A DNA stretch of 64,000 nt from an uncultured Lachnospiraceae bacterium (GTDB taxonomy: Bacteria > Bacillota > Clostridia > Lachnospirales > Lachnospiraceae): positions 1 through 64,000 of the forward strand of contig ONNQ01000002.1 of assembly GCA_900319245.1 (NCBI GenBank), written 5' to 3'. Every line of letters starts with the position of its first letter. Positions within the stretch are counted from its first letter, which is position 1. A program made the translations under genes and the position numbers. The notes beneath the pieces were generated by a model, which saw only the letters and a list, made by a program, of their open reading frames with translations, was not told where the DNA came from and made no database searches. Below, piece after piece: positions 58,030 through 58,308 of the stretch.

Positions 58030-58308
58030 ATGGATTATACAATACTCGCTAAAGGTATCGCACTGGCAGGCTGCGCAATCGGTGCAGGATGCGCTCTGAT
58101 CGCAGGTATCGGCCCTGGTATCGGTGAAGGTAACGCAGTAGCAAAGGCTCTGGAAGCAATCGGCCGTCAGCCTGAGTGCAAGGGCGACGTCACAAGCACA
58201 ATGCTCCTTGGCTGCGCGATCGCAGAGACGACAGGTATTTACGGTTTCGTTACGGGTCTTCTTCTGATCTTCGTAGCACCCGGCATGTTCATGGGGTATC
58301 TGGGCTAA
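58030..58308 (+). CDS. atpE: ATP synthase F0 subunit c
   Basis: This rotor ring subunit is a hairpin of two membrane helices carrying the coupling ion. The 92-residue protein has [20 protein letters not shown] in helix 1, the polar loop RQPECKGD and [12 protein letters not shown] in helix 2. The coupling carboxylate is Glu66. Helix 1 has Glu33 where Na+-type rings carry Gln, and Thr67 and Tyr71 stand where Na+ rings have Ser and Tyr. This matches the two-carboxylate type described for Fusobacterium and suggests Na+ coupling. CAGGAGGAAA precedes the ATG at 58030; an upstream in-frame ATG has no site. Confidence 0.96.

What the first reader, a model, noticed from the sequence alone, without database searches (positions are those of the whole stretch)
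58030..58308. ATP synthase c subunit with a two-carboxylate, Na+-type ion site
Helix 1 reads GIGEG with Glu33 and helix 2 reads AETTGIY with Glu66, Thr67 and Tyr71. Known Na+ rings have Gln32, Glu65, Ser66, Tyr70 (Ilyobacter), and a rare variant has Glu32 with Glu65 (Fusobacterium nucleatum). This protein combines the second Glu with Thr in place of Ser, and so points to a Na+-driven enzyme or to a mixed H+/Na+ site. Together with an [FeFe] hydrogenase in the same window it suggests an anaerobe using a sodium gradient.
Basis: partly seen in the sequence, partly recalled or inferred. Interest (0 to 1): 0.72.

Follow-up and report, generated by a model that had tools for sequence, protein, structure and literature searches.

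The report
Sodium-type ATP synthase of gut bacteria
This is an ATP synthase rotor gene of a gut bacterium whose ion-binding site looks built to hold sodium; relatives share the same site, so it is a good new example of a known kind rather than a new one.

Summary
The gene at 58030-58308 encodes a 92-aa F-type c subunit with Glu33, Glu66, Thr67, Thr68 and Tyr71. They align without gaps to Glu32, Glu65, Ser66, Thr67 and Tyr70 of the solved Fusobacterium nucleatum Na+ ring. It lies in a complete atp operon of a Lachnospiraceae-like metagenome assembly.

A Na+-coupled synthase is well supported: the assembly has all six rnf genes, and no second c subunit was found (87% complete). Some relatives carry a second synthase without the Na+ ligands (Ile33, Ala67); it co-occurs with Ech-like genes.

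The novelty claim fails. Thr at this place is in the solved Acetobacterium woodii ring, and 'Gln/Glu32, Glu65, Ser/Thr66' was printed as the Na+ consensus in 2008 (PMC2359735). The exact combination is in 80 of 80 nearest named loci (a capped list) and in at least 26 of 293 genomes sampled from the class. The [FeFe] hydrogenase is of a monomeric type, not an ion pump.

Caution: a similar site (Glu, Glu, Thr, Met, Tyr) in an N-type ring proved H+-selective (PMC5376962).

The parts
58030..58308 (+). atpE, F-type ATP synthase c subunit with two-carboxylate Na+-type site (E33, E66, T67, T68, Y71)
57145..57909 (+). atpB, a subunit; stator Arg172 followed by His173
   Evidence: PF00119 151.6 bits against cut-off 33.9; TIGR01131 100.3 bits, just under its cut-off of 102.6
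56396..56659 (+). atpZ-like gene (PF09527 ATPase_gene1)
   Evidence: 32.9 bits against cut-off 26.6
56669..57121 (+). atpI-like membrane protein, 150 aa
   Evidence: No family match above cut-off; assigned by position. A homologue sits between the atpZ and atpB homologues in 73 of 80 named loci
58381..58887 (+). atpF, b subunit
   Evidence: TIGR01144 96.9 bits, cut-off 65.5
58884..59423 (+). atpH, delta subunit
   Evidence: TIGR01145 109.1 bits, cut-off 57.5
59436..60956 (+). atpA, alpha subunit
   Evidence: TIGR00962 809.2 bits, cut-off 484.45
60972..61844 (+). atpG, gamma subunit
   Evidence: TIGR01146 286.8 bits, cut-off 194.45
61865..63253 (+). atpD, beta subunit
   Evidence: TIGR01039 830.5 bits, cut-off 462.85
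63289..63693 (+). atpC, epsilon subunit
   Evidence: TIGR01216 78.1 bits, cut-off 67.25
57975..57998 (+). predicted RNA hairpin about 30 nt before the atpE start; function not tested
   Evidence: 6 sequences, 9 pairs, 4 with a change on both sides in at least one sequence; 4 pairs are broken or gapped in one or two sequences; covariation term only -0.33

Best explanation
The operon encodes a Na+-coupled F1FO-ATP synthase of the two-carboxylate type. Each site in the c ring is expected to hold one Na+, bound by Glu66, Thr67, the side chain of a permanently protonated Glu33, a backbone carbonyl and a water held by Thr68, with Tyr71 locking Glu66. Rnf exports Na+ while oxidising reduced ferredoxin; Na+ returning through the a/c interface turns the ring and makes ATP. 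Shown here: the residues, their alignment, the operon, the rnf genes, and that no second c subunit was found. Inferred: Na+ binding, protonation of Glu33, the ion pumped by Rnf, and a ring of about 11 (from the glycine pattern). The synthase lineage is shared with other Clostridia.
For: The side-chain ligands of the F. nucleatum Na+ ring are present at aligned positions, with Thr for Ser as in A. woodii chain 4bem_A (ligand list from PMC3692424). The motif E/ETT/Y is fixed in 80 of 80 named loci. All six rnf genes in the same genome, C-D-G-E-A-B in one row; OAD-beta present. One PF00137 match in the genome, and one in each of the 7 genomes, own included, with an identical c subunit (completeness 67-88%). 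In 4 of 4 named Butyrivibrio genomes searched PF00137 finds exactly two c subunits, one E/ETT/Y and one I/EAT/Y, which fits the one Na+ and one H+ synthase reported for the related Pseudobutyrivibrio ruminis (review PMC11026938, passage). Across 37 genus-level genomes the I/EAT type co-occurs with EchB-like genes (the weaker of two PF00146 groups, split by me on E-value): 8 of 9 with, 4 of 28 without, Fisher p = 0.0001; with any PF00146 match, 9 of 9 against 7 of 28, p = 0.00009; kinship not corrected.
Against: No experiment on this protein. The B. pseudomallei N-type ring has Glu30, Glu61, Thr62, Met63, Tyr66 and was predicted to use Na+ but behaved as H+-selective (PMC5376962, passages); it differs from ours at the Thr68 place. 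Two-carboxylate H+ synthases exist (PMC3692424 names Streptococcus pneumoniae and Mycobacterium tuberculosis). A 2026 paper on Blautia luti models its Rnf and ATP synthase as H+-coupled (PMC12773636, passages); I did not examine B. luti itself. Four sister genomes (G003, G007, G022, G031) carry an EchB-like gene yet only the E/ETT c subunit was found in them.
Confidence: 0.85

Rival explanations
1. Mixed coupling: the ring uses Na+ at normal Na+ excess but also H+ to a useful extent, as reported for Methanosarcina acetivorans, so that one synthase can be driven by both a Na+ pump (Rnf) and, in sister species, a H+ pump (Ech).
For: M. acetivorans, also predicted to have two glutamates, is reported to couple to both ions (PMC3692424). 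Four sister genomes have an EchB-like gene and only the E/ETT c subunit was found; a fuller Ech-like gene cluster was checked in one of them, G003.
Against: The ligand set matches the F. nucleatum ring, reported as Na+-only under physiological conditions. Antiporter genes could exchange the gradients without a mixed ring: of the eight genomes searched (G000, G003, G007, G013, G022, G024, G031, G035), 8 have PF03553 and 6 have PF00999; of the four with the EchB-like gene, 4 and 3. The window genome itself gave no PF00146 match.
Confidence: 0.11
2. H+-only synthase with a second, structural glutamate, like the N-type ring.
For: N-type precedent with Glu, Glu, Thr, Tyr (PMC5376962).
Against: The Thr68 water ligand is present here and replaced by Met in the N-type ring. 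Operon order is the F-type one, and the NCBIfam alternate-F1F0 models that matched all score below their cut-offs. Some relatives carry a separate I/EAT synthase that fits the H+ role.
Confidence: 0.04

Closest known systems
Fusobacterium nucleatum F1FO-ATP synthase c11 ring (chain 3zk1_A; PMC3692424)
   Same: Two glutamates, Tyr, second Thr as water ligand, glycine-rich helix 1, ungapped alignment
   Different: Thr67 here instead of Ser66; ion specificity untested here
Acetobacterium woodii Na+ rotor, c2 subunit (chain 4bem_A)
   Same: Helix 2 AETTGIYG identical at the site
   Different: Gln in helix 1 instead of Glu; the A. woodii ring also contains a double-hairpin c1 subunit
Na+-dependent ATP synthase of Pseudobutyrivibrio ruminis (Schoelmerich et al. 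2020, not held; reported in PMC11026938)
   Same: Related rumen bacteria; four named Butyrivibrio genomes carry an E/ETT/Y c subunit 90-94% identical to ours
   Different: The P. ruminis sequence was not read here, so identity of the site is inferred; P. ruminis also has a H+ synthase, of which no c subunit was found in the window genome
N-type ATPase ring of Burkholderia pseudomallei (PMC5376962)
   Same: Two glutamates, Thr after the second, Tyr
   Different: Met in place of Thr68, different operon order, H+-selective in test

Membership tests
F1FO-ATP synthase (F-type) | Full set of a, b, c, alpha, beta, gamma, delta, epsilon genes in one operon | tested here: met
Two-carboxylate Na+ c ring (F. 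nucleatum type) | Glu at the 32 equivalent and Glu at the 65 equivalent | tested here: met
   Ungapped alignment to 3zk1_A
Two-carboxylate Na+ c ring (F. nucleatum type) | Hydroxyl residue at 66, Thr at 67 (water ligand) and Tyr at 70 | tested here: met
   T67, T68, Y71; Thr in place of Ser
Two-carboxylate Na+ c ring (F. nucleatum type) | Na+-stimulated ATPase and Na+ protection against DCCD | not testable with these tools
   Needs bench work
Two-carboxylate Na+ c ring (F. nucleatum type) | Ring of 11 subunits | not testable with these tools
   Glycines G26, G28, G30, G32, G34 match those of the I. tartaricus ring in the alignment; suggestive only
Rnf-coupled Na+ energetics | All six rnf genes in the genome | tested here: met
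   rnfC-D-G-E-A-B at G000:C44: A, B, C, D and E exceed the cut-off of the general Rnf model (TIGR01943, 01944, 01945, 01946, 01948); G has the RnfG model as best match but 80 bits against a cut-off of 102
Rnf-coupled Na+ energetics | Rnf pumps Na+ rather than H+ | not testable with these tools
   Both kinds are known; no test here
N-type (alternate) ATPase | atpD and atpC first in operon; alternate-F1F0 models above cut-off | tested here: not met
   Order Z-I-B-E-F-H-A-G-D-C; TIGR03306, 03322, 03321, 03324, 03323 and 03305 all below cut-off
H+-type (I/EAT) paralogue of relatives | Ile in helix 1 and Ala after Glu | tested here: not met
   the paralogue is a separate branch on the a+c tree (SH-aLRT 97)

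The most novel reading that the evidence does not exclude
In this sublineage a single two-carboxylate rotor has taken over from the pair of Na+ and H+ synthases and is driven by both gradients: Rnf-made Na+ and, in sister species with Ech, H+. Four sister genomes have an EchB-like gene, and only this synthase was found in them.
Probability: 0.11. Interest if true: 0.5.

Novelty: new member of a known kind. Interest (0 to 1): 0.22.

Why it matters
It extends the two-carboxylate Na+ rotor, defined by experiment in F. nucleatum, to a large group of gut Clostridia as a testable prediction. It also suggests that ATP budgets that assume H+ coupling in such bacteria should be checked for Na+ coupling: the 2026 Blautia luti model does so (PMC12773636), while the three other named Blautia genomes searched here (B. 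caecimuris, B. wexlerae, Blautia sp. MSJ-19) each carry an E/ETT/Y c subunit, two of them beside an Ile33 type. It is not surprising in itself.

Tried and rejected
Chance or frame artefact: rejected.

Rare combination: rejected by the relatives.

[FeFe] hydrogenase as the energetic partner: rejected. It matches the monomeric B1 model and lies some 55 kb from the atp operon; Rnf is the candidate pump.

Co-evolution of the His after the stator Arg in subunit a with Glu33 in c: looked striking (RH in 160 of 161 E/ETT loci, duplicates included, against 0 of 19 I/EAT or I/EGT loci). But 6 of 8 Q/EST loci also have RH, one E/ETT locus (L124) has RL, other Glu33 loci vary (RH 3, RM 1, RL 1), and on the a+c tree the His changes only twice and the pair test cannot reach significance. 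It is a clade marker.

Ion pumps not found in the own genome: membrane PPase and the PF00146 membrane subunit of Ech/complex I. The assembly is 87% complete, so absence is weak.

Plasmid collection: 4 records with partial matches, none covering 80% of the query; not pursued.

Papers: I read sections 7, 8 and 14 and passages of PMC3692424, section 5 and passages of PMC2359735, and passages only of PMC4478896, PMC11026938, PMC4320612, PMC7414866, PMC7911925, PMC7793690, PMC5376962 and PMC12773636. The P. ruminis PNAS paper was not held and is known to me only by recall and through the review. My searches listed no paper that I saw to discuss the Glu plus Thr-Thr site in Lachnospiraceae; they cover only the held open papers, and most listed papers were not opened.

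Corrections on checking: one search counted G010 among the genomes with the weaker RnfD type, but its two matches are partial pieces, so the count given in this report is 12, not 13. The split of PF00146 and PF03116 matches into stronger and weaker groups is mine, by E-value.

Full report
Observation. The ORF at 58030-58308 (+) encodes a 92-residue c subunit with Glu33, Glu66, Thr67, Thr68 and Tyr71. A Shine-Dalgarno-like AGGAGG precedes the ATG at 58030. It is the fourth gene of an operon in the order Z-I-B-E-F-H-A-G-D-C, 56396-63693. The I gene has no family match above cut-off and is named by position. Of the 80 nearest named loci, 57 gave all ten homologues in this order, 22 gave a subset in this order, and one gave G and D exchanged; loci cut by contig or window ends were not examined one by one.

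Alignment. phmmer against PDB chains aligns residues 5-85 to F. nucleatum chain 3zk1_A without gaps and 5-92 to I. tartaricus 1yce_A (a 2-residue gap near the C end), offset by one. Glu33 is thus at Glu32/Gln32, Glu66 at Glu65, Thr67 at Ser66, Thr68 at Thr67, Tyr71 at Tyr70. A. woodii 4bem_A has Gln with ...AETTGIYG. In F. nucleatum, Na+ is bound by Glu32, Glu65, Ser66, the Val63 carbonyl and a water held by Thr67, and Glu32 stays protonated (PMC3692424, sections 7 and 14 and passages). The 2008 consensus for Na+ c subunits reads Gln/Glu32, Glu65, Ser/Thr66 (PMC2359735, figure legend seen as a passage).

Origin. The nearest named records are uncultured Lachnospiraceae, several with RUG names that I recall as rumen genomes, then Blautia, Fusicatenibacter, Butyrivibrio, Enterocloster and others. 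The window's assembly has 2.92 Mb in 80 contigs and is 87% complete. Its own name is not given; Lachnospiraceae is inferred from these.

How common. All 80 of 80 named loci have E/ETT/Y; they are the best 80 of 515 relatives found in a capped scan and are 89-100% identical. Among 37 genus-level genomes, own included, 25 have it, one of them (G032) split, apparently by undetermined bases; one more (G001) has only a 32-residue stub. In a class-wide sample of 293 genomes (at least 90% complete, own excepted), 172 matched. I read hairpins from 89 loci of 84 of these genomes besides the own one, and found E/ETT/Y in 26 genomes of 12 family codes; 87 matched genomes were not read, so 26 is a lower bound. 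Other motifs in those 89 loci: Q/EST 18, Q/ETT 25, I/EAT 10, E/EST 3, Q/ESS 3, and single cases, counted as hairpins. Of the 12 other genomes of the same family that matched, 4 have E/ETT, 7 have Q/ETT and one gave only I/EAT.

Phylogeny. On a tree of subunits a plus c with the motif columns left out (117 rows, short search, SH-aLRT only), the Lachnospiraceae E/ETT synthases group with those of other Clostridia (support 98), apart from a branch that holds the Q/ETT synthases of the window's own family and order (99) and from the I/EAT synthases (97). Two E/ETT rows lie outside the main group: L124, inside the Q/ETT branch, and L287; both are long branches. A c-only tree is poorly resolved (76 of 134 inner branches open). 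So in the Lachnospiraceae the Glu33 form is a separate synthase lineage, not a recent Gln-to-Glu change, though such changes may have happened elsewhere.

The partner synthase. Nine of 37 genus-level genomes carry an I/EAT/Y c subunit, and 9 of 14 genomes reached through named loci carry an I/EAT/Y (7) or I/EGT/F (2) one, among them 4 of 4 named Butyrivibrio genomes. It lacks the helix-1 ligand and the hydroxyl. EchB-like genes (weaker PF00146 group) occur in 8 of 9 genus-level genomes with it and 4 of 28 without (p = 0.0001; kinship not corrected). Ech-like clusters were confirmed by further family matches in G015 and G003 only. This fits the P. ruminis report of a Na+ and a H+ synthase beside Rnf and Ech (PMC11026938, passage).

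Own genome. Rnf: six consecutive genes rnfC, D, G, E, A, B at G000:C44; five exceed the general Rnf model's cut-off, RnfG does not. OAD-beta: one match. PF00146: none. Membrane PPase: none. PF00137: one. PF03553 antiporters: 4 matches at 3 sites; PF00999: one. All 7 genomes with the identical c subunit, own included, have one PF00137 match and at least one RnfD-type match, so a missing H+ synthase is unlikely to be an assembly gap in all of them.

Results against. N-type Glu/Glu/Thr/Met/Tyr is H+-selective (PMC5376962). Two-carboxylate H+ synthases exist. The Blautia luti paper assumes H+ (PMC12773636). Four sister genomes have an EchB-like gene but no I/EAT c subunit was found. The ion pumped by Rnf was not tested and can be H+ in other bacteria.

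Verdict. A well-supported prediction of a Na+-coupled F-type synthase of the two-carboxylate kind; a new member of a known kind, widespread in relatives; low surprise.

Noticed in passing
window 57145-57909 (a subunit, residues 172-173): The stator Arg is followed by His (CRHFGN) where most other types have Leu (RLFGN). RH in 160 of 161 E/ETT loci (duplicates included) and 6 of 8 Q/EST loci, 0 of 19 I/EAT or I/EGT loci. On the tree it behaves as a clade marker.
   Followed up: partly
window 57975-57998: A short RNA hairpin about 30 nt before atpE keeps most of its pairing in 6 close relatives (4 of 9 pairs with a change on both sides, 4 pairs broken or gapped in one or two sequences); the window's own stretch is not unusually stable (z -1.42). 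It might tune c-subunit translation.
   Followed up: partly
genus-level genomes G000-G036: Rotary ATPase content is a mosaic within one genus code: 20 E/ETT only, 4 E/ETT plus I/EAT, 5 I/EAT plus a tandem-hairpin (V-type-like) c, 4 tandem-hairpin only, 1 E/ETT plus tandem-hairpin, 3 none found (one of these has an E/ETT stub). Tandem-hairpin and E/ETT types nearly exclude each other (1 genome shared, of 10 and 25; p = 1.6e-5, kinship not corrected). Many assemblies are incomplete.
   Followed up: partly
L281 (G015:C14), 5086-7733: A second RnfC/RnfD-like gene pair (this genome only). RnfD-type matches of this weaker group occur in 12 of 37 genus-level genomes, including all 9 with the I/EAT c subunit (recounted; one search had 13, wrongly counting G010). 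Its role is unknown.
   Followed up: partly
window 215-1717: Monomeric [FeFe] hydrogenase, group B1 model 562.3 bits against cut-off 450.
   Followed up: yes
window 63719-63749: Terminator-like inverted repeat followed by a T run just after atpC, read by eye.
   Followed up: no
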